A stretch of DNA of 64,000 nt from Taxawa tesnikishii (nom. ined.) (Eukaryota; Ascomycota; Dothideomycetes; Dothideales): assembly GCA_030247885.1 (NCBI GenBank), contig JAPDRO010000001.1, forward strand, positions 248,001-312,000. Reading direction: 5' to 3'. The notes beneath the pieces are model-generated. The model saw only the letters and a program-made list of their open reading frames with translations. It had not been told where the DNA came from and made no database searches. Position 1 is the stretch's first letter. Each line of letters opens with the position of its first letter. This document shows positions 712-58,441 of this stretch, one piece after another. The position numbers and the translations under genes are program-made.

Positions 712-2571
712 ATGACGCTTCCGCACAGCAAAGCCACGCAAGTTTTGTCCATTGAGGAGATTTCTGGTCCAGCTGGCAGTGATAGGGCCCTCGCGGAGGG
801 AACGGATGCAGACGTATGCGATATGCATCGTATGGGTAAGAAACAGGTCTTGCGCGTAAGTACCTCAGATCAGCATCCATTGTACCATTCTGTTGACGAG
901 ACCACCAGAGAGATTTCCGCTTCATATCTATCGTGGGTTTCGTATGTATCCTTCAAAGTACCTGGGAGAGTGCCCTTATGTACGTTCGCATACCGAGTGG
1001 CCGCGACGAATCGAGCATTTACGGCTAGACATAGGGCCAACCAATATGGCTTGCTCAACGGAGGCACGGCCGGAGTCATCTGGGTTACTATTGCCGTCTG
1101 GCTGTGCGCCATGTGTATGATCGCCTCAATAGCCGAGATGGCTTCGATGTGAGGAGGCATACCTGCTTTTACAGCTAGCAAGTCACCGAATGCTGACGTC
1201 GGACAGGGCTCCAACCGCGGGCGGTTCGCTCATACGCATAGATCATTGTCACGTTGCTGCGCTGACGTTCGACAGGGCAATACCATTGGGTATCCGAGTT
1301 TGCACCTACATCTCTCGAGAAACCGCTCAGCTACGTCGTAGGCTGGTGCTGTTGCCTGGGTTGGGTAGCAAGTATCCCGTCCGGTGGCCAATTTTTGGCC
1401 TACCTTGTTGAAGGGCTCGTTCTACTTGTCCACCCTGACGCCAACATAGGAGCACTATGGCAGACGACGTTGATGCTCTTCCTCTTCGTCTGCCTTACCG
1501 TCGCATTCAACATGTTCGCCTCGCATCAGCTTCCACTCGCCGAGGGCATCATATTCGTCCTTCATGTCGTCGGCTTCTTCGTATTCCTTATTGTTTTCTG
1601 GGTCATGGCTGACAAGGCACCGGCGCACGACGTCTTTTTCCAGTTCTCGAATGGTGGAGGATGGCCTAGCATCGGGGTATCCTGCTTGGTTGGGCTCACG
1701 ACGCCACTCTGGATGTTCATCGGACCGGATTGTGGAGCACACATGTCTGAAGAAGTCAAAGATGCTGGACTCGTGCTGCCGAAAGCCATGGTGTGGGCTA
1801 CCTTCATCAACGGTATCATGGGTATCACTATGCTTATCACCTTTTGCTTCTGCGTCGGAGACCTCGACGGAGTGCTGAACAGCCCGACCGGTATTCCCAT
1901 CATCCAACTCACCTACAACGTGACAGGATCTATTCCCGGAACTGTCGTTCTGACGACCCTCTTGATCGTCCTCAGCTTCTTCGGTACGATTACCTGCATC
2001 GCCTCTGCATCACGTCAGGCTTGGGCTTTTGCGCGGGACCAGGGTTTTCCTTTTTCCACCTGGCTAACCTACGTGAGTATCCCCCTCCTACTTCCTCTCA
2101 TCCTCGCTTGATGTCGAGAGCTTACAAGAAACCAAAGGTGCGACCGGGCGTTGACGTTCCCATCAACTCCCTGATCATGTGCCTGGGCGTCTCGCTCGTT
2201 CTGGGCGCCATCAACTTCGGCAGCGACACCGCGCTCAATGCCATCATTGCGGTTTCTAATGCCGCGCTTGTCTTCTCCTACATCATCTCTATCGGATGTC
2301 TTCGCCTGAAGCGGCTACGTGGCGAACCCCTGCTCCCGAGGCGCTGGAGCTTGGGACGATTCGGTGGGCTGGTCAACGATATCGCGCTCGCGTTTCTCCT
2401 CATCAGTTTCGTATTTTCCTTCTTTCCGGAGGAGGTCCACCCAGACGCACCATCCATGAATTGGGCGATTGTCATGTTTGGCGCCACGTGTATCCTGGCA
2501 TTAGGCTATTACGTTGTCGGTGGGGGCAAAAGTATGTGAACCCAGTTATGCTGGTTAGGAAGGAAGAATGA
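712..2571 (+). CDS. APC-family amino acid / GABA / choline-type permease
   Basis: Plasma-membrane or vacuolar amino acid/polyamine/choline transporter of the fungal APC family, about 525 aa with 12 expected membrane spans. Five introns (856-908, 980-1034, 1149-1206, 1224-1275, 2073-2137) restore one continuous frame through hallmark blocks: MGKKQ, RDFRFISIVGF, NGGTAGVIW, MASMAPTAGG, QYHWVSEF and WAFARDQGFPF. As spliced, the frame stops at 2539 after GGGKSM. One base added in the G run at 2522-2526 would instead continue through QKYVNPVMLVRKEE to the stop at 2569-2571, the expected family tail. The substrate cannot be told from sequence. Confidence 0.85.
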
Positions 2572-2672
2572 GAGATGACCGGATTTGCCTGCATGAGTTT
2601 TGAGGGGTTTCTGAATTCACATGTCGATGTGGCTATACGTTTGGGGCATACAGATTCCGCCTGTCAGCCGCA

Positions 2673-4520
2673 TCAATACTCCAATGCATCAGCAAAGGCC
2701 ACAAATCGCCTCCATTGCGTGTCGATTCCCTCCTCCAATCTCTTAATATACCCTTCTCCTCTCATCATTTCGCTCCTGATCTCGTTGTACTTTGCTTCCA
2801 CGCCATCTTTGAACTGGCTCTTGCCGTGACTCTTTGGTACCAAGTCCTTGACTTCGTTGATGAGCCTCCAGATCACGGTAACAAAATCAAAGCCTGCGCC
2901 GAGGAGCTGTACACTGTGAGGATCCTCGTAGTTTTGCAGCATATATACCATCAGCATGAGCAGTGTCCAGGTGTGCACAACACGCACGGGATGAAACCTC
3001 TGCGGGTACAGGACAGGGTCGATTTTGAAGTACGTCTTTGCGGCTTGGAGGAACGCGATGCCGTAGTTGCCCTCCGAGAGCATTCGCACGAAAAGCTCCT
3101 GTCGTAAAGCTGGGTAAGGCTGCCGGGTTATTGCGAACATCTTGCTCTGGTAACACACGCGCATTCCGCTCTCGTACTGTCGGATTGCTTCCTTCACACG
3201 TTCGCAGCTTTTCCCTTTCTCGAGATGGTCGAAGGCCAGGCCTTGGACTGCCGCCAGTCGCCGCTCGTCGACAGAGGGTCCGAGATAATATCTAGGGTCC
3301 TTTGAAAGGGGTGGTCTTCGTAGCATTTGCCGCCGAGCTTGTCCCACTTCTTCTCGAGCTCGTTGGCGGGGCGTAGGAACCGGTCTTCGGGAAGGGTAGG
3401 TCCGAGGCGGCATTTCGAACAGGCGCATGTGAAGTGGAAGCGCTCCTTGAGCTCTACTTGGCGCATAGAGAAGGGGTTGGTTGTGTCGACGTAGGCGATA
3501 AAGACCTCCTCGTCCGGGGCGATAGGGACGAGTGAACGCAGTGATACTCGTGGCCCATCGAATACTACTAGTGCATTCGGTGCACAGGAATGATTTGCGG
3601 CGCAGAGAAGGGGATCAAGCGCGATGCCAAGGGCGTCGAATGTGGAAGTTACGAGCGTTAGTGAATTGTTCACGACCTTATCTATGGTCAGAGCGGTCCT
3701 TGTGAGAGTATACCACACAGTTAGACTGATACGTACCGTACGCCACAGCATTTTCGGAGTGTCTACATCCAGTCCGGCCGCAAAGTACGACGGGGTGGAG
3801 CCGCCAGCAAGTCTCAGAATACCGTTCCACATAAGAAAGTCTGGCATTCCAGAAGTCTTATCGGACATGTCTTTTAGATCGATCTCGTCGTGTCTCTCGA
3901 GCTGCAGCACGGCTTCTTTTTGGGCTTCTGATAGCTGCTTTTCCTTCATGAGGAGAAGCAAGTGCGCAGCGGCTCTCAAGGCGTGTGGAAGGTCTGAAAC
4001 CTTTGACAGATGCTTGCATTCGTACTTGTGTATCAACTTCCAGTGTTTGCTCTGGCATCTCTGGGAGGACAAGGGGTCAAACGATGTGCACAGGCTCGCT
4101 CTTGTCGAGAACCGACGCGGTCAACAAACAAACAGAGAGAAGACGGCTTACCCTGCTGCAGTACTTGACCTTCCTACAACCAGTACATGCCTGCACTGTA
4201 GGTGGAGCGTCTTCAGGCACCACAGCGCTAGGAATGGCTGTCCAAGTGAAGCAATTCGCACATGTATCGGGTATTCTGTCGAGATCTAGTACAGCTACGA
4301 GAGGGCGTGCAAGGGAAAGTATAGTCTCGCCCTCTTTGAAGCTCTCATCTGCAAACAAGCCATTGCCGGAAACAGGAGACGGCCTGACCGAGGCGTGCTT
4401 CTCTCCTGACATGTCGATGGATTGGACGAGCGATGAACGTTGAACGCGCAGCTCTGAAGAATTGAGACGCGTCCAAGGAATGACGTCAACCGCGTTCTTC
4501 ATCCCAACCGTCCTGCACAC
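2673..4520 (-). CDS. SET and MYND domain (SMYD-like) protein, one frameshift
   Basis: Putative protein lysine methyltransferase of about 565 aa. The order is N-terminal SET part (SGNGLFADE), a MYND zinc finger inserted in SET (CANC, CTGCRKVKYCS, then RCQSKHWKLIHKYEC after an intron at 4061-4151), the SET core NHSCAPN with the cofactor-binding asparagine/histidine, a post-SET CxCxKC, and a helical C-terminus. A second intron (3677-3736) is a multiple of three. The reading frame breaks at about 3301-3314: the frame containing LEKKW must shift by one base to reach DPRYYLG and the long C-terminal part, so one base is missing, most simply from a C4 run on the coding strand. The start is uncertain: 4520, 4502 and 4412 (MSGEKH) are all possible. 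The substrate is unknown. Confidence 0.75.
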
Positions 4521-5592
4521 TTCACCACTTCAAAGACCGGCTATGCCGATGCTTCAATGGGGCCAAGACATGGTTGCTGGGTTGTACAGCTGATCCACTT
4601 TACAGGACGGTGTTGTGACAGAGGAAGGAGGCAGAGGAGGGAGGAAGCTGTATATGTAGACTATGGAAATGAGCTAGCGAGGGCGGTGAGAACCAGCGTG
4701 TGCTCAAACATGCACTGAATCCAACCAATGAGACGAACTCTCATCCTGTTAGGGTTATGACTGATGACTACTCGAAGCTCACTATATGGGTCAGGAGAAG
4801 TATGACAAGGCAAGAGGGCCGTGCAAGGGAAACATGCGGAGCTCTGAGGGGGAAAGGCTCAATCAGTGTGGCCACTCTAGACCGCGAGTTGTCAAATGTT
4901 CTCCTGAGACAGCAGTCTCAATAACTTTACGAACTACTGACCTAAGCATGTTGAAAGACAGGCGGGTATTCTTCTATCAATATCCGAGATTTCGACCGGG
5001 TTGACGATCTCCTTCGGGGCCTCTAGCGGGCTCCTGGCCAGAGTGTGTACACTAACGTACCGGACAAGGCATGACAGCACCAGCACCGTACCTCATGAGG
5101 CGCTAGGTTGATATCAATCGTTGGATTTCATATGGCTCGGGAATTGTTTTAACGTCCTTCGTCTCACGCCCGGAACAGACTGACGACCAGCACTACCGGT
5201 TCGGCAGGCGACAAAAGATACAACAACACCATCATGGCATCTCAGTGTGCCTTCTGGCAATAGCAACATGCTGCTCTGTTGCCTATTGAAGCAACTACTG
5301 CGCTTCTCGACAGCGTGGCCAATACTCTGTTTAGGCGATTGTCTGGACTTCGAAGTGAGGGTTAAGTGAAGCTTCAATCCTTCCCTAAACAAGGTCAACT
5401 GAATTCTTTCCTTCACTTCAGATCACCAGCCACCTTCTTCTGCCGCAAAACAATAGCATCTGCACAATAATGATTGTGCTATTCAGCCTTCCAGCCTTCC
5501 AGTTCTTGTAATTAAAACTCCTCCGCCTTCCTTCCACCTTTCTCTTTTTCAACTTTCCTTGCATACAATTCTCGGTCTCCCTTCTTACCAAG
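4521..5592. other. intergenic, 1.07 kb
   Basis: No convincing gene is seen between the divergent SET-MYND gene and the next plus-strand gene. Open frames are under 105 codons without recognisable motifs. The last 150 bases before 5593 are pyrimidine-rich. Confidence 0.4.
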
Positions 5593-7358: not shown

Positions 7359-7998
7359 TCACTCAAACCCCTTCCCCTTCCTACTTTCAGCCAACCTTTC
7401 CACCTCATTCACCAAGCCTTGCAACTCCGTCACCCCCTGCTTATCCGGCCCCGCACTCTCAAACTCGACCGCCTCCCTCAACCACTCCCTCGCCTCCTCC
7501 AACCGCCCCATCTCCTTCAAACAAACGCCCCTCCTCCACCACCCCTTCACATTAGCCACCTTCTTCAGCTCAACGCTGCACTCGGCATCCACGGCCGCCT
7601 CCGCCCAGTTCTGCTGCGCCATGTGCGCCTGCGCCCGGTTGCCGTAGAGCATGCTCAGCTCCTCGCGCACCAGGCCCGCGGGCTCCCAGAGCGGTCGCGC
7701 CAGCGCCATGTCCAGCGCTAAGCTGTACATGCGCACCGCGTCGCCGAATTGCGACTTCTTGAACGAGGCGTTGCCGGTTTCCTTGAGCTTGGTGATCTGG
7801 GCCGACCGCTTGGGGTTCACGGGCACGGGCGGTGGGGGGCGGTGTGCGGCGCTTCGATGTCCCGGATGAAGGAGCGGTGGAGGGAGTTTAGAGCGTGGAG
7901 TTCTGCGGTGAGGGCGCTGGTGGGGTGGGATGTCGAGATGGCTTTGGTGCTGGGGTCGATGGTGAGGGGAGTTGGTGGAAGGTGTCGGGGCCTTCCAT
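7359..7998 (-). CDS. SEC72: Sec72-like ER translocation subunit (TPR), two frameshifts
   Basis: Cytosolic TPR component of the Sec62/63 post-translational ER translocation complex, about 213 aa when read through two breaks. It starts MEGPDTFHQLP. A middle frame gives LTIDPSTKAIS to SFIRDIEAP. A third frame gives PPPPVPVNPKRSAQ followed by TPR helices (KLKETGNASFKK, ALDMALARPLWEP, LYGNRAQAHMAQ, GWWRRGVCLKEMGR), which match fungal Sec72 well. Each junction needs one extra base, in G runs of the plus strand at 7966-7969 and 7834-7839 (C runs in the gene). The length and the PVNPKRSAQ block are as expected for filamentous-fungal Sec72. Hri1, whose yeast homologue is reported to contact Sec72, is at 39281-40024. 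Confidence 0.8.
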
Positions 7999-8306: not shown

Positions 8307-10047
8307 CTAGAGCTTCGCCTTCGACTGGCCCGAGACTCTGTTCAGCTCCAGCGGATCCTTCCTCATGACGCCGTACTTCTTGGCCATCTCTGCCGCCTTC
8401 GCTTTCTGCCACTCAATCCTCTCCAGCAGGAACTTGCCGCGCTTGTTCTCGTTCTTTCCCAACTGGACCAAGTGCACCTCATCAGGACCGTCGACGATCC
8501 GCATCGTGCGACCCTGCGCCCACATGTTGGCCAGAGGAGTATCCTGCGAGACACCTGCGCCACCGTAGGCCTGAATGGCACGGTCGATGACAGTAAGTGC
8601 CATGCTTGGGACGAGGACTTTAGCCTCGGCGATCTCCTTGAGCGCGAATTTTGCATCCTACCGGTTGTCAGCGTGAGTGCTACTAAAGGAACGGGTTTCG
8701 GGACTAACTTTGCTGTCGATAGTAATGGCAGCATTGAGCACCGCAAGACGGGCGGCATCGATCTCAATGCGAGAACGCGCGACCCGTTCGAGCATAATGC
8801 TGTGCTCGGAGAGAAATTTGCCGAACGGCTTCTTGCGAGGATCGTTCATGCGAGCAACGAAGAACTCGAGCGCTTTCTCGGCCTGCGATGATCATCAGTG
8901 ATGGGTCAATGACCTAATGGAGGGATGTAAACGCACTGCACCAATACTTCGCATGGCGTGGTGGATTCTTCCTGGTCCGAGTCTGCCCTGAATAACCTCA
9001 AACCCTCTGCCTTCTCCAAGACAGATGTTCTCAACGGGTACCCGCACGTTATTGAAAGTGATGTGACCGTGTCCATGGGGCGCATCGTCGAACCCGAACA
9101 CGCTGAGCATACGGTGGATAGTGATGCCTGGGGTGTCTGCTGGCACAAAGATGACGGATTGCTGCTTGTAGATGCTGGAGTTATTCGGATCCGACTTGCC
9201 CATGACGATGTAGATTTGACACCTCTCGTCACCAGCGCCGGACGACCACCATTTCTAGTGAAGTAAGCAATGGTATCCCGACATAAGATAGTGCTTGAGC
9301 TGCTTACGGAACCATTGAGAACGTATTCATTGCCCTCCCTCCGGATGTTTAATTCGATGTTAGTGGCATCACTCGACGCGACGTCTGGTTCTGTCATCAA
9401 GAATGCCGACCGGATTTTGCCATCGAGGAGTGGCTGCAGCCATCGCTTCTTCTGGGCCTCGGTGCCGTACTTGGCGAACACCTCCATGTTTCCGGTATCA
9501 GGTGCAGCACAGTTGGTGGCCTGAGCACATCTGATCAGCGCCCAGTTCTACCACGTACCCATTCCGCGCCAACTCTTGTCCTTGTTCATCGATCAACGGA
9601 AGGGACATACCTCACTCGCTGTCCTGCTCTTGCCGAGGTACTCTGCCATAAGACCATACTCCAGATTACTGAAACCAGCGCCCTCCTTAAAGTGATTCTT
9701 CGGCAAGAACATGTTCCACAACCCTAACTCTTTCGCCTTCTTCTTCAAGTCTTCAATGACTGGTGGGTGCTGACCGAAACGATGGACGGTGCCCTCTCCG
9801 AGCTGCTGGGCGAATATGCTGTCTGCAGGAATACATTCTTCTTCGACGAATTTCTCGACCTGTTCCCTCTAAGCGAACGTCCAGAGACCTGGAGATCTGG
9901 CAAGCGTACGATGTCCAGTGTCTTCCTTGCTCTCTCGCTCACAAACGGCCTGGCAATAATTGGGATCTTTTCCGATGCTACGGGCTGCTTCCCGTCCGGG
10001 TTGACCATCAGGTTCTCGGAGAACTTGCTCTTCTGTTCCGACGACAT
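8307..10047 (-). CDS. acyl-CoA dehydrogenase (ACAD10/11-like)
   Basis: FAD flavoprotein for alpha,beta-dehydrogenation of acyl-CoA, peroxisomal or mitochondrial, 480 aa. Six exons with introns 8658-8708, 8883-8936, 9255-9307, 9521-9610 and 9860-9909; all exons are whole codons. Recognisable blocks in order are [105 protein letters not shown], and the C-terminal [16 protein letters not shown]. The start chosen is MSSEQ at 10047; an in-frame ATG at 10077 would add ten residues. No N-terminal kinase or cytochrome b5 domain is fused. Confidence 0.9.
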
Positions 10048-18242: not shown

Positions 18243-18755
18243 TCAATCCAACCACCCGTCCACACCACCCTCCCGCCCCTGGTCCTCCGCATAGACCGCC
18301 ATCCCCTCCCGCCCGTCTCAATATCATCGTGCCTGAACTGCGCAGGCGGCAGATCCTCCCTGATCAAACCCTCAGCCGTCCTGCAGAGATCGTCCCACGT
18401 CGCGAGGGCGAAGTCGATGGCCTGGCTCAGCCGCTTGCCCGCCATCATGCTCGAGGGCCGCGAGCGCGGCGCGTTGTCGAAGATGGAGGAGGAGGAGGGC
18501 GAGGGCAGCTCGGAGGTCGAGATCAGGGTTCCGGTGGGCGAGACGAAGATGGGTAGGCCCATTGTTTCTTTGCTGAGCGTGTCGAGATCGCTGGTGCGGC
18601 CTGTTGGGCTGCTGAGGAGGGGGGACTGTTGCTGCTGCTGCTGGTGGGGGTGGTGGTGACGTTGTTGGGGATGTAGAGGCTGGAGCGGTTGGGTTTGGGT
18701 TTGGTGCTGTTGTTGCTGGAGGGGTGGATGATGGGGGCGCGTCTGAGGAGGTCAT
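18243..18755 (-). CDS. small unknown protein, three apparent frameshifts
   Basis: I do not recognise this family. Reading MTSSDAPP from 18755 and allowing one missing base in each of three C/G runs (about 18742, about 18620 and 18303-18306) yields a coherent protein of about 171 aa. It has a Ser/Thr/Pro-rich N-terminus with SSLYIPNN, then RTSDLDTLSKETMGLPIFVSP, a helical stretch KRLSQAIDFALATWDDLCRT, and the ending GMAVYAEDQ..GWLD followed by TGA. Without the corrections the best single frame starts at MGLPIF (18562) and runs into a purine/pyrimidine repeat coding for many Phe, which looks artefactual. It may have an upstream exon. Confidence 0.5.
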
Positions 18756-23426: not shown

Positions 23427-24850
23427 TCATACCGTCAACGTACCCAACAGACCAACAAACGTGTTCTGTCCGTGAATATTCTGCGTGCCGTCCACAGGAT
23501 GCCGGGCACCGCAACGATCTAGCAGGAGCAATGCGAAAAGCTGCAGCGGAACGCCAGGCCGGGCATCGATACATTGATACCGTACCGACTGAAGCACCCT
23601 TGGTGGTCTACCGTTACCAGCCGGGCTTATCAGCGGCGCGCGCTGCTTTCCCGCTTCCTCTTGGCTCTGCAAGAGGTGAGACTCAAGGACCATCAGGCCC
23701 ACCTCGGCTGGTACGTGGTAGAGAATTGAAGCTGGTTCGGGGAGTGTCAGCTGCTGGAAAAGGGATTCCACCTGTTGGGCTGGAGGTGATTCTTTGAGTA
23801 TACGAGGTGGGATTCTCATCTCCAGCATCGGCAGGAAAAGGGTGTCTTCACTCGGCTCTCCTTCATTCAGGTACTGGCACCTTATCAGCCGAGGATTTGT
23901 CCTCTTTACCCAAGGTATCATTTTCTGCTTCTTGTCATCCCACTTGAACGGGGTTCCGCTCCCCACGTTGTACTGATTGTAGTTCTCCGTACCGCCTCGA
24001 ACCATAGCCTTGCGAAACGTGATGTTGATACGACCCTTATCGCTCTCGCCACCTTTCCTCTTGGGGATGCTGTGAAGCCAGTTTGATTGGGTCCTGCCAC
24101 GCATCAGGATCATATCACCAGAAGCAAGGGGCAGTTTCAGTGGCTTGGCCTCGGGCAGAGGCTCTTTGTCAGATGGCGGCACGGGTTTATGCTTCATCAG
24201 AAAGTCACGTTTCGCTCCAAGCGAGAAAGATGCAATGGCAGGATTGGTTCCAAGGAAGCGTTCGTCGTCGCTGTGGTACGATATACTGTCATCGCCGGAA
24301 GCGTAGTAGTTCACCAGGCAGAAGTTGTACGTTTCGCTGGTACTACCTTCCGTGATCCTCCTCAGGAAGTCCAGACATTGGGGAATTGGACGCGGCTGGC
24401 ATTTGTATCGGTCCTTGGGTACCGGCTTGCCAGTGTTGGTATCTACCAAAGAGCCGTCATCGGCAAAACGACTCGATTGATCTACTCCGAAGACCGTGGT
24501 GAAGCGCGGTGTATTGATTTGCGTTTCCACAGGCCCACGCTTGATCTTGTACTGAACGCGGTAAAGAAGAGTTCCCGCCGGAGAAAGTGAAAGAGGTCTT
24601 TCTCTATTTCCTTGGGAACATATGGTTGGAAGTACAAAAGATCCAGATCCGGTTGATCATTGATGACACTTGCTTCTGCTGCGGGTGCAAAGCCCAGGGT
24701 GTCGGTAATCTCCGAGGGCAGATGCGGTAGAGGGAAAGGATATGTTGGGTGATTCGAAGAGTTCAGTGGCGAAGAGTAAGCGGTTGTTCGCTGTTTCTTT
24801 GTTTGCGGAGGGCTGAAAAAGTTATCGAGTGTCTGCGGTCTCTTCGACAT
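23427..24850 (-). CDS. AlkB-like 2OG-Fe(II) dioxygenase (ALKBH2/3 type), one frameshift
   Basis: Predicted direct-reversal DNA/RNA dealkylase of about 474 aa. The N-terminus, MSKRPQTLDNFF, resembles a PCNA-binding box (TLxxFF) followed by basic residues. The catalytic core contains the substrate-loop TPRFTTVFG, NYYASGDDSISYHSDDE (iron ligands His and Asp), ASFSLGAKRDF, WLHSIPKR (third His ligand) and RINITFR (2-oxoglutarate arginine). Frames separate at about 24563-24565: the frame ending RRELFF must shift by one base to continue YRVQYKIKRGPVETQ, so one T is missing from the coding strand. The C-terminal 150 residues beyond NQYNVGSG are not recognised and may contain an unmodelled intron. Confidence 0.85.
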
Positions 24851-25733: not shown

Positions 25734-27249
25734 ATGTGGCCATTCGCCCTCCGGCAGAACTGCCCGAGCGGTACTGCCTACCACGTCTGTCAGAATGGCT
25801 TCAAGGGATGCTGCTCTGTCGATCCATGCAACCCGGGGATACTTGCCCAGATGTCTCAGACGATTCTTCTTCTCCTTCTTCCGCTCTAACCTCTGCGCCG
25901 ACGGATTCCTCGCCTAACTCATCCACATCAACTACCCCCGACATCAACACCCCAAATACACCGCTACAAACAGCAACTAGAGCAACCTCGATTGTAACAG
26001 TTACCGGTCCTCTCCCCACCACATCGCAGCAGCCTGCTCCTTCACCCACCACCATCTTCGTCTCTGCGATCAATTCACCATTCACCTCGGCGTCCTCCAG
26101 TAAGTCATCCTCGGCGGGTCTCTCGGCAATTGCTAGCCCAACTGCTTCGTCAACAAACCCCGCGTGTCCCACCGCCAACAACACTGTGGCTGAGAACGAA
26201 GGGACTTCCAATCATGCGAGATACAAGATCCTGTGCGGCATGGACAGTTCGGCTGACTCTTCCGACGCCGTCTCTGTCGTGTCTGGTGGATTCAGTGGAT
26301 GCTTTGCAGCTTGCGACAATGACAGTTCATGCGCCGGCTTCTCATTCGTTGGTTCCGACAATGGGACGTGCCACCTAAAGTCTCAAATTGGAGACTATGT
26401 TAGCAAACCAGACGACAATCTCGTACTCTGTGTCAAGACGAGGAAGGACGCCAGCGAGACTGGCGGAGGCAAGCACACTTCCACCGGCACCATAGTAGGA
26501 GCAGTAGTGGGCAGCGTCGTAGGTGCCCTGCTCCTGCTCCTAATCGCGGCATTCTTTGCCAGGCGAAGGATGCGCAAGAGCAACGAAATGAAGAGAGCAA
26601 CCCTGAAGAACAAGCCTTGGGGAAAGCTGCGTGGAGGCTCAGATAATGAAAGCATGTTCGAACCTGAGAACATGTTTGCGCCTTACGGAGGTAACAACGC
26701 GTGCTTCCTCGCAAGCAGGGGAATGCTGACATCTTCTGCAGGCTATGTTCGCGACAAAGAGCAGCTCCCTAATGGCGACGTGGTGGAAGACATGGTTGCT
26801 CAATTCAAGGCGAGCCCACAATGCAGCGAGCTGGACTCCCAGGAAAAGCAGGTCCCTTGCAGCATGGCTCAGCGGAGAAATCCACAACCGCCTCACTCAA
26901 CAAGCCAAGCGATGGTCGCTCCAGCGCATGGAAACACTTTCGAGATGGAAGACACATCTCCTAAGAACAATACGCCAGAGATGGGAAGCTCGCCTGCAAT
27001 GGGACGGCAATTCGCAGCTTCCGGCAATACTCTGGTACCGGAAGGAAGCGTTGGGGACAGAGGTCGGTTAAGACAGCACGTTATGAGCTGGAACACCTTC
27101 GATCCGAGAAATAGCGGCTCGCAGCCCTCAATCATGTCATCTGGTCTTTCCCTCGCTTTATCTCTCCAGATACTAGCCCGGATTTGCCATCTGGTACCTG
27201 GGCCGGCCAGAACGGCGCTGGGGCGATTAGTGCACAGAACGGCGTCTAG
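25734..27249 (+). CDS. Ser/Thr-rich apple-domain single-pass membrane protein, frameshifted
   Basis: Predicted cell-surface protein of about 505 aa, function unknown. It starts MWPFALRQNCPSGTAYHVC with a cysteine-rich N-terminus ending CCSVDPCNPG. A missing base in the G4 run at 25835-25838 is needed to continue DTCPD into a long Ser/Thr/Pro stalk, probably O-glycosylated. A PAN/apple-like module follows (YKILCGMD to LVLCVK, six cysteines, FSGCFAACDNDSSCAGFSF), then a membrane span (GAVVGSVVGALLLLLIAAFF) with a basic stop-transfer (ARRRMRK) and a cytoplasmic tail. Near 27110-27160 another one-base shift or a short intron leads to SPDTSPDLPSGTW and TAG at 27247. The uncorrected frame would run on to 27673. 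Confidence 0.7.
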
Positions 27250-34154: not shown

Positions 34155-37126
34155 CTAGTCTTCGTCCTCGAAGAAACTCATGATGGCCCTGATACCACCG
34201 GGGCCCAGCCCGTGCGGTGGGTAACAGACATAGATGGGATCCTCCTGAGCACCGAGCTTCTCTCTGAACTCGGATTTGGCGGTCAAGTGCAGCTCACTGG
34301 CGATGGCGTGGTAAGCCTTGCTGAGGACCTTGACCCTGGTGCCCTTGAGGTTGTGGCCAGGGGTGAAGCGGTTGGAAGCACCGCCACCGAAGGTGACGGA
34401 GGTAGCACCCATGGCGGCGCAGGCCTTGAGAGCGTGCATGACAAGGGCCTCGATGGCACCGGATGGTGCGCCGGGGAAATCCAGAGAGAACTTGACTTGC
34501 CAGCCATGGTCGGGGCTCAGCTGGGCAAGGATGACGAGACCGCAGATGGTACCCTCTTTGTCGACGCTGTAGTGGTACTGACGGTGCTCCATGTCTTGCC
34601 ATGGGTGGACATCAGTCAAATGGACCTGCTTGCCCTTGCGGTTTGCCAGCCAATCCTTAACACGCTTGTCGATCTTCTGGCGGACGTCATCTGACACCGG
34701 CTCGCCAATCGGGATGTCGTGGATCTTGACACCCTCCTTCTCCGCGTGGCGGATCTTGCGCTGAATATCATGGTCGTGTTGTGCTGGGTTGTTGCCTGGG
34801 TCAAGACGCTGCTCGGCAGCGACGGAGAAGGTGCGCCAGTTGAATTTGCTCGCGAGTGCTTCCTCGACAGCGTGACCGCAAAGTAACCACAGTGGCTTGA
34901 GGTTACGTTCCTTCTTGATGTAGCGCAAATAGCCGGACATGGTCTTGACGTACTGACTCTGGTGACAGAGCGGGTCGCCGACAGTGATAGCATAGCCCTG
35001 ATGAGGAACGAAACCGACGGCAGCACCAGTGTGCTCATCGCGCCAAATCTCTGTGCGTGGCTCCAACCATGAAGTGTTGGATGCATCACCGTAGTTCGCA
35101 ATAAGCTTCTCGAGGGGTTGAAGCTCCATGTGCGCCAGGGTCCTGTCCTTGCCCTCCCATGGCGGGTGCAATGTGCTAGCTTCCGGATGCCTGAGTTGCT
35201 TGATTGCTGGCTTGGCGGGCAACGACTTGGGGTCGCGAGGGAACAACGTAGCGTGCCTAATGTCGCCCAGCTGGAGCAGAAGCATCAACATACGCTCCAA
35301 GCCAATACCACCACCCCCGTGTGGAGGCGCTCCCCACTCGAAACCTTGCATATAATCCTCCAAATCATCAGGGTTCATCTTCAGCTTCTCCATGTTGTCC
35401 CGAAGCGTCTTCGCATCGTGAATACGCTGACCGCCAGAAAGGATTTCTTGTCCTCTGAGGAAAATATCGAAAGAGTTGGTATATCTAGGGTCGTTGGGGT
35501 CAGGCATGGCGTAAAACGGTCGTGCACCCGTGGGGAACTTGTCCAAGACGTAGTAGTCAGTGTGGTATTTTTCCTTGACCAGTTTACCCAGCGCGATTTC
35601 ATCCCTCGTACCGAGATCCTCATCTTCTGGAAGCGGTTCACCGTTCTCCTTCTTGTGGCCCGCCTCAGTCAGCATCCTGATACCTTGTTTGAAAGGAATG
35701 ACAGGGGTCTTCTCGGTCCAGACGAGGTCTTCGTGGGGAAGTGCTTCTTCAAGGTATCAATCTCGTGGCGGAAGTGCTTGTACACGCCAGCGAAGATGGA
35801 TTTGAATGTGTGATCAAGAACACGAAGAACTTCATGGTAGTGCTCGTCAATGGCCATCTCAAGATCCAGACCGGTGTACTCAGTCATATGCCTGTGGGTG
35901 TTGCTGTTCTCTGCACGAAAGACCGCGCCAATCTCAAAGACCTTGCGGAAGTCTGCCGAGATACACATCTGCTTAGCTAATTGCGGAGACTGAGCCAGAA
36001 ACGCTGGTCTACCGAAGTAATCCAGCTTGAAGACACTGGCACCAGACTCGGTGGCACCACCTTGAAGCTTGGGCGTGTGGATTTCAATGAATCCTTGCTC
36101 AAGGAGGGTTTGACGGAAGAAAGTTGAAACACCAGACTGTATTCGGAAAATGCTCTGCGAGGTGGTCGTCCGCAGGTCGATAATGCGGTTCGCCAGTCTG
36201 GCACGATCCGACACCCGGTGTCGAGGATCATCTTCAGCCTTTGTTTCTTCTTCAGTAACTTCCGCTTCCCCGACGTTGAAAGGTAAAGGCTCTGTAGGCG
36301 CGGCCTCGACATAGAGTTCGTGGATGGAAATTTCGAGGCTGTGAATGGATGTTCCAATAATCTCTCCTTGCTTCGCTTTGGGTTCCTGCACTACACCCTT
36401 GACACAGAGCACAGATTCGAGGTGAAGATGCTCGGCAAAGTAGATCATGCCCGTTCCGACACCCGCATGCTCGTGAATGAGGCCCTGGATGGTGGTCGTC
36501 TGTTGCCGCAGAACCATGAACACGAGGTGTGCACTGATATTGCGCAGGCTGTGCAGTCGGGCTCTGAAGACGACCGACTTGCCGATATGAGAATCGTTGA
36601 GCTCGAGAAGGTCGATGCGCCTATCGCCCGACAGTCCACCGGCGTAGTTGTTGATAGGAAGCACACCGTACTTCTTAGCCATGTCCGGGGTCTCGCCTTC
36701 CTTAGCACGCCGTTCGGCTTCCTCCCTCTTCTTCCTGTCGGCCTCAGCGTGTTGTTCGGCCTCCTTCTGGTGTCTTTCCTTTTCCTGGAGCTTCTCATGC
36801 TTGCGCAGCTGGGCCTTGCTCATGTGCTCGCCGTCTCGGTTCAATGGGCCGCCGTCGGACGAGCTTGAAGAGCTTGAATCCCGCCTGAGTTTATTCCTGA
36901 AAGCGCCAAGAGGGCTGTGTGTGGGACGGTGTTCGGTGGTGGATTGGCGAGGAGTGTGCTCGCCTGATCTTCTTCCGTGCCCTCCGTTGCTGAGCCCGGA
37001 CATGCTCTTGCGAGGGCTGTCGGTACTCCTGCGAGGACTCTCATCTTCACTCTGCACAGCGCTGCTCGAGGCGCTGTCGCGGTCCCTGTGCTTCAGGCTG
37101 TGGAAAGCCTTCTTGAGCGCGGACAT
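34155..37126 (-). CDS. erdS: ergosteryl-3-O-L-aspartate synthase: AspRS fused to DUF2156
   Basis: Bifunctional enzyme of about 990 aa. The class II aspartyl-tRNA synthetase part charges tRNA-Asp; the C-terminal DUF2156 (GNAT-type aminoacyl-tRNA transferase) part moves Asp onto ergosterol in characterised fungal homologues. The order is a disordered, Ser-rich then charged Lys/Glu helical tail (1-148), OB-fold anticodon domain from MAKKYGVLP (149), AspRS core with motif 2 FRAENSNTHRHM (about 400) and motif 3 GGGIGLERM (about 608), then DUF2156 from about 675 (TGAAVGFVPHQGYAITVGDP, FGGGASNRF, CYPPHGLGPGGI) to the end. One base is missing in the C4 run at 35735-35738, shifting KKHFP to HEDLVWTEKTP. 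No intron is seen. A free-standing cytosolic AspRS should exist elsewhere. Confidence 0.92.
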
Positions 37127-39280
37127 GATGGGTGATGTCGCTCGTTGCTCGCTCGCTGCTCAGTGTGAGGAAAGTGCGAGGAAAAGGCGGAATGGTGGAG
37201 GAGAGGAGTCTGAGGGGACAAGTGATGGCAATGTGAGGATTGGGGTGGGGATTGGAAGCAGAGCGGAGCGTGGCAGGGGCGTGGTGTGGTTTGAATCGCT
37301 TACGAGTAACTTGATCAAGTCGTAGCAGTGATGTCAGATAGGTCCAAGCAGAAAAGCGAAAGCCGGCGGGTCCGCTTCAGCCCAGTCTCTCGGGGCCGGC
37401 TGTCCTCCGGCACGCGCCATTTGCAGATCAGACAGGGCAGGAAACGCCTACGTGGACAACGACGGCTGGCAAGCTTCCCCGTTGAGCTTGTTTTTTGCGA
37501 GGCTGGTTCAGGTTCAGGTTCTGGTTCTGGTTCTGGTTCTGTGGAGAGAAAACGCGATTCGAGTCTGTGGGTTGTTCACGCGCGACTGTGTTGCAGCACG
37601 CGAGACCACGTCACTTCTCCGCGGACTGTGGCAGTTGCGACTCCCTTCGTGTACGATTATATAGCATATTGCCGCTCAGATAATGCTATACGAAACGCGC
37701 TCTAAGTTTCACAAAAGCGAACATGTACACATACAATCTGAGGTAAGCCAAGGCCCATGTCCGGCTTCTCCGGGACCTCATCTTTCCCGTGGCGCCCACC
37801 AGTCGCGTGCCCCATTCATCACCTCTACCGCTGTAACATCGACGACAGATTTTATTTGCCTCTTCTGTTTGCCACCTGATTTGTTCTCTGTTGTTCGTGA
37901 AACCCCGGGCGACACTCCGAGGTACATTCTCTCGTCCGAGAAAGGTGAATGAACAGCTCTGACGCCACAAACAGCTGACACAGCAGACTGCGTGCTTAGG
38001 GAGCAGGCTGACTGTTAATTTGTCCGCATGCATGCACGGTACGCGAACGAATCGCTGATTGCACCCTGCCCAGCATCTCATATCCTGACACTTTGCTGCT
38101 TCACAGCAGGTTTCACCAAGCTGCAATGTGTATGTTTGGTAGATCCTTTCATCGGACCCTGATGTCATCTTTTGAACGGAGCATCGAAGCCTGGAATGCT
38201 GGGGTTCGGCTGCAGCGCTGCAGGTACAACATCCGTCCGCTCTCTCCACGTGTATCCCTGGACGCAGCATTTGTGCGGGCGCTTCATGTCCGTGACGGTG
38301 CTGAAACTTGAACGTTCTTTGGTCGACATCACAAGCCTAATCTACACCAGCATGGCATTTGGCTGGTCATGGCACTCCTCAGTTAACCCTGCTAAGTGCT
38401 TGGATACAAAATATACAGGAGTCTGAACGATTAAGTAGAACAGAACAGACTGTACATAGGCCCCCATTGACAAACTTGACCCTTCCTGATGACCTCGATA
38501 GCGCCCTCTTCTCCAAATTTAGCGCTGCCCGTCCCTGTCTCTAAACTCTCGCTCGTCACCGCTTTGGCTTCCGTGTCCGCATGAGAGTTGTCCGTCAAGA
38601 CTCTAGATCTCACTTTCGTATTCGGGATGGTCCTGCTCCAAGTGAGGATCCACGTGCTGGATGCCTCGGAACCCGACAATCTGAAATAAGTCGGAAGGAG
38701 CTAACGTGAACCCCGTCTGCAAGGTACCATCGCGTTCGCTGTAGACACACCTAGAATTAGGTCGCGTCGCATTAGGAAGACCGTCCGGCGGCTGCTAGAA
38801 CATCGGTAGACATAACTCGAGCAAACGTATTCGGCGCTTAGCCTCAGGCTATCGGACAGCTAGCTTTGACAGCGGGGCGGCCTCAGATGGACAATATGCT
38901 TAGGGTCATCTTCCGAGAAAGCGGACGTTCATGGAGAGATATGTTCCTGCATCACGATCAGCATTGAACATTAACATCAACCGAGTGGCGTAGAGTTGAG
39001 TCTCTCAAATACTGTTATGAAAGTCGATATCGTAAATAAGAAGTAAAGAAAAGCGATGTAAAACTATTGTTGATATTGAAGGCTAGTTAGGCGTACTTTT
39101 GATGGCAACTGTCTAATTTGCGTTATAATGTCTCCAATCACGGGGCCGGAAGGCCGCACTACTTCTCAATATGATTGTCGACTGAGTGACAAGGGTTTGC
39201 TCCCCGCACGATGGCAGCGTACTTGGAGTAATCTTGTGGTTGTTCGATAAAGGCCACTCTTGCTCAAGCGACATGCGCCA
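37127..39280. other. intergenic, 2.15 kb
   Basis: No gene is supported. It holds a hexamer repeat (37505-37540), a 14-base perfect palindrome at 38210-38223 (CTGCAGCGCTGCAG), and an AT-richer stretch from about 38950 to 39140. The largest frames (194 aa minus, 37686-38270) have unusual Cys/Arg-rich composition and no motif. Confidence 0.4.
37505..37540 (+). repeat. GGTTCW hexamer tandem repeat
   Basis: Six tandem units, GGTTCA twice then GGTTCT four times. Outside any supported gene, upstream of erdS. Confidence 0.9.
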
Positions 39281-47222: not shown

Positions 47223-49371
47223 ATGGCTCCTCAGAATGGTCAGATCAACCACAAGAAGCACGCATCCGGTCGCGTTGTTCCAGCTATTCCGCTCCAGCTC
47301 ACGCGAAAGCGCTCCGTGAAGCCAACTGTCAACGGCACGCGTCTGGAGCAACAACCACTGGAGGAGAGCAAAGGCTCAGTCTCGGATGCTGTAGCAGAAA
47401 CACCGGTAGAGGAGATCTGGGCCAGAGATGGAATCATCAAGGATTCACAGGCCATCGGTCATAACCTTCCGAAGTCGGACGTCGCGCAGCCCGTGCAAGA
47501 CGTGCAAGATGTGCAGGAAGTGAAAGACGAGAAGCAAGAGGTCGCGGATGTCGCACCTCCACCGGAGGCGCTTGATCGACTTCTCGAGGAAGGCAGAGTA
47601 ACAGTGGACGATTCCATCCAGGCTCAGGCAGGTGCGGCTGATCCGGATGCTGCAGCGGTCATCGAGGACCCAATTCCAGCAAAGCCGGCGTCACCTGAAC
47701 AGTTGATCTCTCCAATGAAGAAGGTGAACCTTAGGAGCGGCAGAACCGAACTTCCGCCAGCTTTCGTCCCATCTTCATTGCGCCATCAGCAGTCGCATTC
47801 AGAGACACTTTCTAAGCTATCTCAGCCAGTCACTCAGGCCATGCATCAGCCTGCTCACCCTAGCGTTGACGGTATCGTCTTTGGTGGATACGCCGACTCA
47901 GCTCAATCCTCGCCCGCTCCTTCACAGTCCGCCAACTCCATGTTCAGCCAGCCTCCTGGACTCGTGAATGGAAACATGAACGGCGCGGTGCCTCCACCAT
48001 TCCCTCATCCAGGACACTCACACTATCCGCCTGTACCTGTTCCTTTTCCACCGCAGCAGCACGGACTTCCGTTGGACGGAAGGGCCGACCTTCCTCCTGC
48101 ACCATCAGCAGCATGGATGCCTACACCTGATGGTATCTCCGCCAATGCACACCCTCACGCCACCAACGGCCCTTATCTGAACGGCTTTGCGCACGGCTCA
48201 CGTCCTGCTTCACAGGCATCATCGGCTCCGCATGAGGCTCGGGAGCCCGTTATACGGACTCCGGACACGTCATTCACTGGCGATGATTCTGTTCAGCGCT
48301 CAGCCGTGCAGCCCCTCCAAATATGCAACCACCGTCAGAGGCATTCCTTTACGCGCAAGATCCCCTGCTTTCGTTGAGAGACTATCTTCTTAGCCAGTTT
48401 GGCAATCCCGAATTCGCAGATTACATTCTGGAGCTTCACGACCACCAGTTTCCGCCACGAAGCATACCGACCCACGGTATGCTGTTGGCACGTAGCCCTG
48501 GCCTCGTAGCCATGATGCGAGCAGCTTCCCCAAATCCGAGCCGCAAATGGTCAAACGCCTGATGCTGCCTCCTCGATTTTATTTCAGATACTTTGACGGT
48601 GCTGTCGAAGCTCTGAGGTACCTATATGGCGCTCCGCCCCTCGACGGCAATCCGTTTTTCGGATCAGCGATGGATCCAACTACCTTGGATGGTCACATGA
48701 AGTACGCTCTGTCATATGCCGCTGCTGGAATAGGCATGCAAATCCCAGTGATTTTCAACCGAGGCCTGGACATTGCAAGCCGCTTACTGAGATGGGAGAA
48801 CGTGGAGACAGCGCTAGCATTTGCACTTGACGGTGGCATCAGTCCGACGTGGGGGACCGGCTTGGAAAACTCCTCCCTGAACGAGTTCCCGGAATTCGCT
48901 AGCCCACCCACCTACGACCCTTTCGCAACTCACTTCCTCCACACCATCCTAGACTTTTTGGTTTTCCATTTCCCGACAAACTTCGTCCTTGAGCGATTCC
49001 CTGCCGGACCCAATCACGCATCTCGCTTATCCATCTCTGACCCCCGTCTTAAGGCTCTCAAGTTTGGTGACTTGGGAGATGGATACAACACCCAGCAGCC
49101 GTTGGCCGCATCCACTCTTTCTACCATACTGCTCGACCTGCCTTTCCCGGTGCTCAAGGCGCTGCTCGAGCATCCGGGCCTTGGTGCTAGGTTGGGCTGG
49201 GACCTCGTCATCCGCAATATGCACGCGGTGGTCGAGGAGCGCAAGTCCAGACGTCAGCGAACCGCTGATGGAGTGGCTCCGCACGGCATCTGGGATGAAA
49301 CGATTCAGTTGTCCTCCCGTCACCGCTCAGGTTACGAGCTCGTGCGCCGACGGGCAGAGACTGATGCTTGA
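47223..49371 (+). CDS. BTB/POZ-like fungal protein, two frameshifts
   Basis: Uncharacterised protein of about 716 aa when two missing bases are allowed. The disordered Pro/Ser/Gln-rich N-terminus (residues 1-363) ends SAVQP. A base missing in the C4 run at 48312-48315 leads into PNMQPPSEAFLYAQDPLL and a BTB-like fold (FADYILELHDHQFPPRSIPTHGMLLARSP). A second missing base in CCCCAAA (48528-48534) leads into EPQMVKRLMLPPRFYFRYF and a helical region (DGAVEALRYLYGAPP). The remaining part, to VRRRAETDA, contains ERFPAGPNHASRLSISDPRL. The family is widespread in Pezizomycotina without a known role; a link to ubiquitin ligases or scaffolding is only inferred from BTB. Confidence 0.7.
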
Positions 49372-54211: not shown

Positions 54212-55315
54212 ACAGCGACTGCGAGGGTTTGAGGTTAGATGTGCCGCCAAGGGCGAAGAATGCCTTACCAGCTCTTAGACGTACTCGATTCCAGACTTCA
54301 TTCACGCGGGAACGGTTGTGTTCGTCCGCTGCTGGTTAATTAGTGGCCGATCGGTTAGTGAAGCCTGGTATGTAGGCTGAGGAACGCATTGCCGGTGTTT
54401 CTAGGACGGAAATAGTGTAGTATATGTAAAACAACATTGTACAGATACTTGATGCCCGTTCACTCTTTTGCGAGATCAAAAGCTATTAGTCTGCACACAT
54501 TCGTTCCAATTGGAGTTGGTCGTCACCCTCATCATCGCCCGAACCCTCGACATCCTTCTTCACCCGCAGGCATGGTCGACACGATGCAAAGAACAGCATC
54601 TCTTGCTTGCCGAAGTTGGTGTCTACAGACAGAGGGACGGAACAGCAGCAGCGCAAGATGGACTAAGATGCTCGTGACGACAGATTGTTGTACTCTTGCC
54701 GTCCTTATTAGTGCGGGTCTAATATTGATATAGAAGCCCTGCTTCACAGTTCATGTCCTCTACATTGTATGTACGCCGTTCTTTGTGAGCTCAGTCAATG
54801 AGAGTCGTTACATTGACCTTTCCAAGCGGTGGGACGTGATAACTAGGGGTCGAAGGTAGGTGTATACGTATCTCACGATCGATACTACAACGATTCTTCC
54901 TTTACTGTTAACCGAACCACGAGGGCTAATTCCGTAGTCCTCCCTGGCTCGGGGCGATGCAATATCAATCCATGAAGGGAATGCCTTCCCGACCGAATCC
55001 TTTCCCAACTTCGAGAGCCTTTCCGGGAGACGGATCTGCCTCTACTCATAGCTGGAGGGTTCGATATATTAAACAGTGGTATCGAATTCTCAGGGCTTCA
55101 CCTGTTCCGCTGCGGACCAACTGTCCAATCATGGACGTGCTGCCCCTTCGTTCCGGCAGTACCTGAGCCCTGCCTCGCATGTTGGGCATAGTGGCGTTTG
55201 GACAGGCTGGCCACGAATGTTTACTCGCAGCGAGCCATCAATGGCTGCACTTGCACTCTGGACTTTCCGTCCTCAGCATATCGATGAGTCTACATTTTCG
55301 TTCGCCCGCGCAGCT
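54212..55315. other. intergenic, 1.1 kb, convergent 3' ends
   Basis: No gene is supported between mL50 and rtf2. Confidence 0.4.
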
Positions 55316-56263: not shown

Positions 56264-56999
56264 GGTGGGAGATGTTGCGGCTGGATGGCGAGGGTGGAGG
56301 GTTTCTGCGCGCAAGCGGTTGCGGTAATAGGCGCTGGTGTTCGGTCGCGCAGGTCGGAGGATGCGAGGCAGGATGCTATCACGCGATACACCAGTATCGC
56401 TCTGATTTTCTTGTTGGCAAGCGTATGACTATATTATAAGAAGAGATCAACCGAAGAGATTACGCATGGAAGCAAGACTGGAGTCAATTAAGATTCCCCA
56501 TCCCGCAATGGCCGCGAGCGCCAGCCCGCTGTCTCTCTCTCCGCACAGGGATTGTCGCGTGCTCTCGATGCAGCGAATTGCCGTGGCTCGATTTCCACTT
56601 ATTCCAGTGTATCCACTAAAAGACGAATAACCCCTCTCCTACTCAACCAGACCGTTTGTCGTCTGAGCGGATAAATGGAAAGACAAGCGGTTCGGTATCT
56701 TTTACTGCTCGGGCTTGGCAATGCTGACCGGGCACCTCGGCCCCAATTCAATGCACTCCGCCGTCATCCCCGGCCGCCCCTCTATCGACACTTATCCCGC
56801 TGACGGAAACTCACTTTTTTATTCGAATTCACAGTCACTCGCGTGTCCTCTGCTTTTGCTTTTCTGAAGTATCTGACTCTGCCATTGGGCTCGAACCACT
56901 ATTGTCGCTGCGATCTTACTGCACTTACCTTGCCAACGGGTCTGAACAGTTAGAAGAGCTACATAGCTCAAGCTAAGAGATCCTCGGACAACAGTCACG
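56264..56999. promoter_or_regulatory. shared divergent promoter (rtf2 / pantothenate kinase)
   Basis: A 736-base region between two divergent starts, both of housekeeping type. No gene is seen inside; individual sites are not assigned. Confidence 0.5.
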
Positions 57000-58441
57000 A
57001 TGGAGAATGGTACAGCACCCCGTCAAAGCGTCGCCGTCTCTCCAGCTCGGCGACCGAAATGCAAACCGCAATCCTCGAACCCGGTACCATCAAGATCAAC
57101 GTCTCGGGCGCCTACATTATCGACCATGAAGACGGGAAACCGGGCAAGGAGCTCTCAGCTGACGGCTCCAGCACCGTGCCCACCGAAGAACGCGCCTACG
57201 AACACGACAGACGGGACATCCGATTGCCTAACCACACCGATATCGTTTCGCACGTGGCAGCAGACATCGGCGGCTCGCTGGCCAAAGTCGTTTACTTCAG
57301 CCGGGAACCTGGTGCAAAGGAGCCTGGCGGACGGTTGCACTTCCTGCGTTTCGAAACGGACAAGATTGATGCCTGCATTGAGTTCATGCGGGAGCTGCAG
57401 TCGAAGCAGCGACGCACGAACGGAGAGTCTACACACGCGAAGCTGTGCGTCATGGCGACGGGCGGCGGGGCTTTCAAATACTACGATCGCATAAAGAAGA
57501 AGTTGGGCGTCGACGTTGTGCGCGAGGACGAGATGGAGTGTTTGATCAAGGGACTGGATTTCTTCATCACCGAGATCCCATACGAGGTCTTTACGTACAA
57601 AGAAGAGGACAAGGAGAACCCGATGCACTACATCGAAGAGCAGGAGGAGGTATATCCTTATCTTTTGGTCAACATTGGCAGTGGTGTGAGCATGCTCAAG
57701 GTCTCGGGGCCGTCCGATTTCACGCGTATTGGGGGTACGAGCTTGGGTGGTGGTACGCTTTGGGGGTTGTTGTCACTCTTAACGGGCGCGCGGACATTCG
57801 ACCAGATGCTCTCCATGGCAGAGAAGGGAGACAACGCCAACGTCGACCTGTTAGTGGGAGATATCTATGGTGAAGGCATGGGCTATGAGAAGATTGGGCT
57901 CAGCGAGAAAACGATAGCGAGCAGTTTCGGCAAGGTGTTCAAGCGGAAACGCGAGGCAGAACGCAGCGCCGAAGATGGACATTACGCGAGCAACGGGGAT
58001 TCTGCAAGCCACGAACGGCACGAACAAGCCGAGAGCGCGAGACGAGCGCAGGTGGGCGATGGCAGGATGTTCAAGCCCGAGGACATCAGCCGGAGTCTCC
58101 TGTACGCCGTGAGGTGAGTTATGAGCATCCCCGCTCTCCCTGTTCTTGAACAACCCCTAGATTGGTACGATACTGACTGCCATGCCAGTAACAACATCGG
58201 CCAAATCGCGTACCTCCAATCCGAAAAACACGATCTCAAGCGCATCTACTTCGGTGGCTCCTTCATTCGCGGCCACCGTCAGACGATTCATACGCTCTCT
58301 TACGCCATCAAGTTCTGGTCTAAGGGCAGCAAACAGGCTTATTTCCTGCGTCACGAGGGGTATTTGGGCGCTGTGGGCGCGTTCTTGAAGCGGCAGCCGG
58401 CGAACTGGGGACGCAGGGGCAGTGTAGATGGCTTCGACTAG
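57000..58441 (+). CDS. CAB1: pantothenate kinase (eukaryotic type II), one frameshift
   Basis: Phosphorylates pantothenate, the first step of coenzyme A synthesis; about 455 aa. The ASKHA/PanK motifs are [17 protein letters not shown] (phosphate-binding start), [40 protein letters not shown] and [11 protein letters not shown]. One intron (58114-58188) joins LLYAVR/S to NNIGQIAYL. Upstream of MQTAILE (57059) a one-base deletion in the C4 run at 57018-57021 separates the ATG at 57000 (MENGTAP) from [13 protein letters not shown], a basic stretch that could act as a nuclear signal. If that reading is wrong, translation starts at 57059. CoA feedback is known for the family but is not inferable here. 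Confidence 0.92.

What the first reader, a model, noticed from the sequence alone, without database searches (positions are those of the whole stretch)
2517..57022. At least thirteen same-sign frameshifts at G/C runs in conserved genes
Genes that match well-conserved families are each broken by a one-base loss: permease (2522-2526), SET-MYND (about 3307), Sec72 twice (7834-7839, 7966-7969), the small gene at 18.2-18.8 kb three times, AlkB (24563-24565, an A/T run), apple protein (25835-25838), erdS (35735-35738), BTB gene twice (48312-48315, 48528-48534) and pantothenate kinase (57018-57021). Every case needs one base added, never removed, and nearly all fall in C or G runs. For each rebuilt gene, adding the missing bases makes the total length a multiple of three. 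Single-sign run contraction is the signature of homopolymer under-calling in long-read or pyrosequencing assemblies. A real mutator lineage that contracts G/C runs is the biological alternative. Either way, automated gene calls from this assembly will split or truncate many proteins.
Basis: partly seen in the sequence, partly recalled or inferred. Interest (0 to 1): 0.7.

Follow-up and report, generated by a model that had tools for sequence, protein, structure and literature searches.

The report
Unpolished assembly: missing bases break genes
Many genes in this fungal sequence look broken because the genome assembly appears to drop single letters, often inside short runs of C or G; this is very probably a sequencing error rather than biology, and it matters mainly because automatic gene lists from this assembly will be wrong.

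Summary
The observation largely holds and is not confined to the window. A coding model with introns and both shift signs, run on the window plus 24 sampled loci (304 kb), gave 40 'one base short' against 7 'one base extra' breaks that agree in both orientations (24 to 1 at support 4 or more, 15 to 0 at 6 or more), although spiked gains are found slightly more often than spiked losses (86 of 120 against 73 of 120). Losses concentrate at C/G runs (18 of 40 near a run of 4 or more, 4.7 expected), not A/T runs. No in-frame stop accompanies them (0 calls; 53 of 90 spiked stops found). Breaks fall inside ErdS, a CCT chaperonin subunit and Spc7. Best explanation: under-called C/G homopolymers in an insufficiently polished long-read assembly. 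Single sign alone does not prove this, since mismatch-repair mutators also mostly delete. No reads were available.

The parts
35735..35738 (-). C run (CCCC on the coding strand) where the erdS-like gene (AspRS plus LPG_synthase_C domains) changes frame, one base short
   Evidence: Pieces align to 9w9f up to residue 421 and from 416; tRNA-synt_2 profile 3-159 then 155-307; HMM call (25)
34155..37159 (-). erdS-like gene spanning the two open frames
7834..7839 (-). C run in Sec72-like gene, frame change, one base short
   Evidence: Sec72 5l0w residues 11-67 in one frame, TPR repeats in the next, local codon test gain 4.0
7966..7969 (-). C run near the Sec72 start, claimed one-base loss (inconclusive)
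   Evidence: Local codon test preferred the opposite sign, gain 6.6, on a short upstream stretch; Sec72 alignment starts just downstream
48312..48315 (+).
   Evidence: HMM call 48315; stop-bounded frames. No Pfam match to any of the three pieces, so the name BTB is untested
48528..48534 (+). CCCCAAA in the same gene, second frame change, one base short
   Evidence: HMM call 48514; stop-bounded frames
24563..24565 (-). TTT run in AlkB-like gene, one base short
   Evidence: Local codon test gain 11.2; forward-pass HMM shift at 24483 only; 2OG-FeII_Oxy_2 in the downstream piece only
18310..18553 (-). Two one-base losses (about 18310 and 18553) in the 18.2-18.8 kb gene
   Evidence: HMM calls in both orientations; no Pfam match
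2522..2526 (+). G run near the permease C-terminus, possible one-base loss (weak)
   Evidence: AA_permease_2 profile ends at 426/427 before the run; gain 4.5
25835..25838 (+). G run in apple-type protein, claimed one-base loss (inconclusive)
   Evidence: Local test preferred the opposite sign by 1.0
3303..3311 (-). Claimed SET-MYND break (inconclusive; intron 3099-3199 is a rival)
   Evidence: SET profile lies upstream of it
57018..57021 (+). Claimed pantothenate kinase break: not supported
   Evidence: Same best frame on both sides; HMM gene starts at 57059 without a shift
8307..9547 (-). Contrast: acyl-CoA dehydrogenase whose frame changes look like ordinary introns
   Evidence: Pfam pieces in order; introns judged by eye from the frames

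Best explanation
The breaks are consensus errors of a contiguous long-read assembly that was not sufficiently polished with accurate reads. The base-caller or consensus step reports C/G runs of about five or six one base too short, so reading frames shift by one base while the living genome has intact genes. Shown here: one sign in the sampled loci, C/G-run enrichment rising with run length, no nonsense calls, hits inside conserved domains. Inferred: that the real runs are longer, the sequencing platform, and the lack of polishing.
For: 40 one-base-short against 7 one-base-extra calls in 304 kb, 24:1 at support 4 or more and 15:0 at 6 or more; detection is not biased that way (73 of 120 losses and 86 of 120 gains found; 85 of 150 and 91 of 150 at C/G runs). 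Short calls lie in the window, in 14 of 20 contig 1 loci and in the contig 4 and 6 loci. C/G runs of 4 or more near 18 of 40 losses against 4.7 expected (maximum 12 in 1000 draws); runs of 5 or more 7 against 0.77 (maximum 4); A/T runs of 4 or more 5 against 3.4 (maximum 10). Share of coding C/G runs with a loss within 12 bases: 84 of 15320 at length 2, 22 of 3016 at 3, 12 of 622 at 4, 7 of 103 at 5, 0 of 5 at 6. Zero read-through stops, with 53 of 90 spiked stops found. Noncoding C/G runs of exactly 6: 6 seen against about 19 from an order-3 Markov model (16 from order 2), while noncoding A/T runs of 6 or more are 35 against about 38. Contiguous-profile breaks in ErdS, a CCT subunit at C1:528259-528262, Spc7 and an arylsulfotransferase-like gene. 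Fungal precedent: in nanopore-only Drechmeria assemblies about one sixth of 305 conserved genes at most were full length and most errors were in homopolymers (PMC7500977, passages, the first cut at its start).
Against: No reads, transcripts or second assembly could be examined. Pure G/C tracts of 14-25 survive in the assembly (two in the sample), which a simple run-length ceiling would not predict. 22 of 40 losses are not within 15 bases of a C/G run of 4 or more, only partly explained by imprecise placement. One 'extra' call has fair support (5.7, L031 about 8220), and the contig 7 and 8 loci have only 'extra' calls, one each. Local tests at two listed sites preferred the opposite sign. CCT/Cpn60 genes show one break in about 13.7 kb of matched DNA, where the sensitivity-corrected HMM rate would give four to five and the high-support rate about two. 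In the Drechmeria paper polishing gave more insertions than deletions, and its authors hold that PacBio-only fungal assemblies do not share the problem; in the Kastor example A/T runs were hit more than C/G. The coding deficit of A/T runs of 6 (2 against 32) must have another cause, probably selection, which may also explain part of the C/G deficit.
Confidence: 0.95

Rival explanations
1. A real mutator lineage (for example mismatch-repair deficient) that has recently contracted homopolymer runs, so that the genes are truly broken.
For: Mismatch-repair-deficient yeast gives 2011 deletions against 161 insertions at homopolymers and few substitutions (PMC3755907, passages), so neither the sign nor the lack of nonsense excludes it. 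A natural msh2 hypermutator fungus with homopolymer shifts exists (PMC5614558, passages).
Against: Losses prefer short C/G runs, and noncoding A/T runs of 6 or more are not depleted. In the yeast data C/G runs are less one-sided (28 deletions, 10 insertions). A CCT subunit and Spc7 are hit (their essentiality is recalled). The load, thousands of breaks by extrapolation, is not compatible with growth (inference). MutS_V domains show no break other than two intron-sized gaps in the 8 matches found, but the rest of the repair genes was not examined.
Confidence: 0.025
2. Ordinary introns or misplaced starts misread as frameshifts.
For: Fits pantothenate kinase (no shift needed) and possibly SET-MYND (intron 3099-3199), and the acyl-CoA dehydrogenase gene.
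Against: Does not fit erdS or CCT, where both frames abut on the same profile or chain with no gap, nor the HMM, which allows introns and still losses against 7 gains.
Confidence: 0.015
3. Programmed frameshifting, transcriptional slippage or insertional RNA editing restores the frames.
For: Frames on both sides of the breaks remain under coding constraint, with no nonsense calls.
Against: Several breaks per gene in some genes (four calls each in the L026 and L013 genes), varied sites, and concentration at C/G runs as in base-call error.
Confidence: 0.01

Closest known systems
Homopolymer indel errors in long-read-only assemblies (Drechmeria coniospora, PMC7500977, passages; Kastor, PMC12007338, passages)
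   Same: Short indels at homopolymers fragment conserved genes; in the Kastor P. syringae example most indels are false deletions, most often after runs of four to five.
   Different: Here C/G runs dominate and A/T runs show no significant excess; in Kastor's example C/G errors were about half as many as A/T errors; in Drechmeria polishing gave more insertions than deletions.
Mismatch-repair-deficient fungal hypermutators (PMC5614558, PMC3755907; passages)
   Same: Deletion-biased indels at homopolymers (shown for yeast), few substitutions.
   Different: In the passages seen, longer runs are the least stable and A/T runs are included; here short C/G runs are affected, at a density that a haploid fungus should not survive (inference).

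Membership tests
Homopolymer under-calling in a long-read assembly | Indels of one sign across unrelated genes | tested here: met
   40 to 7; 24 to 1; 15 to 0 by support; spike-in controls
Homopolymer under-calling in a long-read assembly | Losses enriched at runs and rising with run length | tested here: met
   for C/G lengths 2 to 5 (0 of 5 at length 6); A/T not significant
Homopolymer under-calling in a long-read assembly | Spread over the genome, no other decay of the genes | tested here: met
   Short calls in 14 of 20 contig 1 loci, the window and the contig 4 and 6 loci; none in the single loci of contigs 7 and 8; 0 nonsense calls. Other contigs not sampled except by family search
Homopolymer under-calling in a long-read assembly | Long contigs | tested here: met
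   34 contigs, 29.37 Mb; contig lengths 0.76-2.83 Mb for five of them
Homopolymer under-calling in a long-read assembly | Reads or short-read data show longer runs | not testable with these tools
   No reads held
Mismatch-repair mutator | Deletion bias at homopolymers | tested here: met
   published bias
Mismatch-repair mutator | Long A/T runs contracted too | tested here: not met
   Noncoding A/T runs of 6 or more 35 against about 38; the model was fitted to the same sequence
Mismatch-repair mutator | Loss of a mismatch-repair gene | tested here: inconclusive
   MutS_V matches show no break except two intron-sized gaps; other domains and MutL genes not examined

The most novel reading that the evidence does not exclude
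A living fungus whose nuclear genes truly lack single bases at C/G runs in thousands of places and whose frames are restored at the RNA level, by insertional editing or slippage. Nothing computed here from DNA alone can exclude it.
Probability: 0.01. Interest if true: 0.97.

Novelty: not a real feature. Interest (0 to 1): 0.1.

Why it matters
It is a quality warning. In the sample 23 of 109 complete gene segments carry a called loss (segments in the short overlaps between window pieces may be counted twice). With roughly 57-61% of spiked losses found, perhaps a third of genes are affected (inference). Gene calls, pseudogene counts, protein lengths and family gain or loss studies based on this assembly would be wrong until it is polished.

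Tried and rejected
The first HMM had a minus-strand fault: it shifted frame inside entry stop codons, and its minus-strand calls did not reproduce on the reverse complement. It was fixed and the earlier counts were discarded; the emission models used from then on are those trained on labels of the faulty version and were not retrained. They were trained on the same 304 kb that they score. Spike-ins were scored in one orientation only, whereas the 40 and 7 calls had to agree in both. Large families score only a few members (PF00083: 9 of 323 candidates), so they were useless for break counting; PF00133 was not informative. An Rfam scan of 12 of the 24 loci found nothing and ARAGORN found no tRNA in the window, so RNA genes gave no independent test. 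Pfam on 30 flanking pieces covered both sides of 17 of the 32 one-base-short calls with support 2 or more: two show the same family continuing contiguously (Spc7, arylsulfotransferase; one piece of each is below the curated cut-off), two show domains in a consistent order on either side (DUF1996 then WSC; DEAD helicase then SPB4 extension), one has beta-propeller matches on both sides, and the other 12 were uninformative. The PDB search with the upstream AlkB piece gave only a synthetic protein at E 2.4, and the SET-MYND piece only an unrelated-looking chain at E 0.012. A strict run ceiling at 5-6 bases was considered and rejected because G/C tracts of 14-25 exist. The organism was not identified; one literature search for an assembly with these statistics listed two unrelated papers (listing only).

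Full report
What was claimed.

Setting. The window is bases 248001-312000 of contig 1 of a 29.37 Mb genome held in 34 contigs; the five contigs whose length was seen are 0.76 to 2.83 Mb. I sampled 20 loci of 10 kb on contig 1 and one each on contigs 4, 6, 7 and 8: 304 kb with the window, with no N.

Site check. The clearest case is the ErdS-like gene: the upstream frame aligns with solved chain 9w9f up to residue 421, and the downstream frame aligns with the same chain from residue 416 to its end; the Pfam tRNA-synt_2 profile is likewise cut at 159/155. There is no room for an intron. Sec72 7834-7839 is supported by the middle piece matching solved Sec72, TPR repeats in the next frame and a local gain of 4.0. 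Both BTB-gene sites are forced by stop codons in the other frames and called by the HMM. AlkB has a local gain of 11.2 for one base short, while the HMM shifts there only in the forward pass, at 24483. Two of three losses in the 18.2-18.8 kb gene are called. The permease site is weak (gain 4.5). At Sec72 7966-7969 and at apple the local test preferred the opposite sign (gains 6.6 and 1.0); both stretches are short or weak, so I call them inconclusive. SET-MYND is inconclusive: codon statistics favour no shift there and the HMM uses an intron at 3099-3199, although the protein read by eye resembles the family in the shifted reading (recalled). Pantothenate kinase is not supported.

Is it more than chance, and is it wider than the window? 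I built a three-periodic coding HMM with explicit introns of 43-160 bases and equal penalties for one base short and one base extra. After correcting a minus-strand fault, calls agreeing in both orientations were 40 short and 7 extra. Support is the loss in log-likelihood when shifts near the site are barred. By support the ratio is 32 to 3 (2 or more), 24 to 1 (4 or more) and 15 to 0 (6 or more). One 'extra' call (7890, support 2.4) sits between the two Sec72 sites and is what two losses would look like; the strongest 'extra' call (L031, about 8220, support 5.7) is unexplained. Spiked single-base changes are recovered at 73 of 120 (losses) and 86 of 120 (gains), and at C/G runs 85 of 150 and 91 of 150, so the method does not create the bias. 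Short calls fall in the window, in 14 of the 20 contig 1 loci and in the loci of contigs 4 and 6; the contig 7 and 8 loci have no short call and one extra call each.

Run context. 18 of 40 losses lie within 15 bases of a C/G run of 4 or more, against 4.7 expected and at most 12 in 1000 draws; for 5 or more, 7 against 0.77, at most 4; for A/T runs of 4 or more, 5 against 3.4, at most 10. The share of coding C/G runs with a loss within 12 bases climbs with length: 84 of 15320 at 2, 22 of 3016 at 3, 12 of 622 at 4, 7 of 103 at 5, and 0 of 5 at 6. Correcting by hand for detection and placement, this suggests that roughly a fifth of true five-base and most true six-base C/G runs in genes are reported short; this is a rough inference. 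In coding sequence C/G runs of six are 4 against 48 expected by synonymous shuffling, and A/T runs of six 2 against 32; as A/T losses are not in significant excess, the A/T deficit is probably selection, and part of the C/G deficit may be too. In noncoding sequence C/G runs of exactly six are 6 against about 19 (order-3 Markov) or 16 (order 2), while A/T runs of six or more are 35 against about 38; these models were fitted to the same sequence.

Conserved genes elsewhere. A CCT chaperonin subunit on contig 1 has two profile fragments meeting at profile position 376, one base early, at a GGGG run at 528259-528262. Spc7 (L013, about 8426-8440) and an arylsulfotransferase-like gene (L016, about 5736) show the same contiguous one-base step, worked out by hand from the coordinates. 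Across the CCT/Cpn60 matches (23 of 24, leaving out one in a much longer frame on contig 31) I found one such break in about 13.7 kb of matched DNA; other gaps between fragments are intron-sized but were not read. This is somewhat fewer breaks than the sensitivity-corrected rate predicts.

Decay. With in-frame stops allowed at the same penalty as a shift, none was used in either orientation, while 53 of 90 spiked stops were found. Old pseudogenes would be expected to carry nonsense changes as well.

Interpretation. This fits systematic under-calling of C/G homopolymers. It does not rest on sign alone: mismatch-repair-deficient yeast gives 93% deletions at homopolymers (PMC3755907, passages), and a natural fungal msh2 hypermutator is known (PMC5614558, passages). 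What argues against a mutator is the preference for short C/G runs, the undepleted noncoding A/T runs, and the density in conserved genes. Long-read-only fungal assemblies are known to suffer such errors (PMC7500977, passages; indels in nanopore fungal assemblies at low coverage, PMC9453082, passages), and PMC12007338 (passages) reports false deletions as the main indel error of a bacterial long-read assembly. PMC7500977 holds that PacBio-only fungal assemblies do not share the problem, which would point to nanopore data; the platform here is not shown. The survival of pure G/C tracts of 14-25 remains unexplained; PMC7500977 mentions long A and T homopolymers introduced by polishing without read support, a possible parallel.

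Size of the problem. 23 of 109 complete gene segments carry a called loss. Taking the 24 high-support calls as a floor and about 55 after a hand correction for sensitivity and false calls, over about 169 kb of coding sequence (56,405 codons; roughly 54% of the sample), the genome would carry some 2,300 to 5,200 such breaks (extrapolation).

Verdict. Real pattern, artefactual cause; ordinary. Interest is low except as a warning to users of the assembly.

Noticed in passing
L010:8190-8205, L011:9837-9851; genome-wide: Pure G or C tracts of 14-25 bases occur in the genome (25 tracts in the first 100 of 339 listed 14-mer placements), while C/G runs of 7-14 are absent from the 304 kb sample; exact 7-runs do occur elsewhere (136 genome-wide). 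Real microsatellites or consensus artefacts.
   Followed up: partly
L026:5685-9998: One long gene (GEMI5 TPR domain in its first piece) carries four called losses, at about 7145, 8771, 9460 and 9724.
   Followed up: partly
L010:5586-7972: A DUF1996 domain and three WSC domains lie in two frames on either side of a called loss near a C5 run at about 6981; probably one fused protein.
   Followed up: partly
   Followed up: yes
L013:5724-9243: Spc7 kinetochore gene with MELT motifs, with four called losses (about 7714, 7927, 8426, 9243); only the one at 8426 is confirmed by profile continuity.
   Followed up: partly
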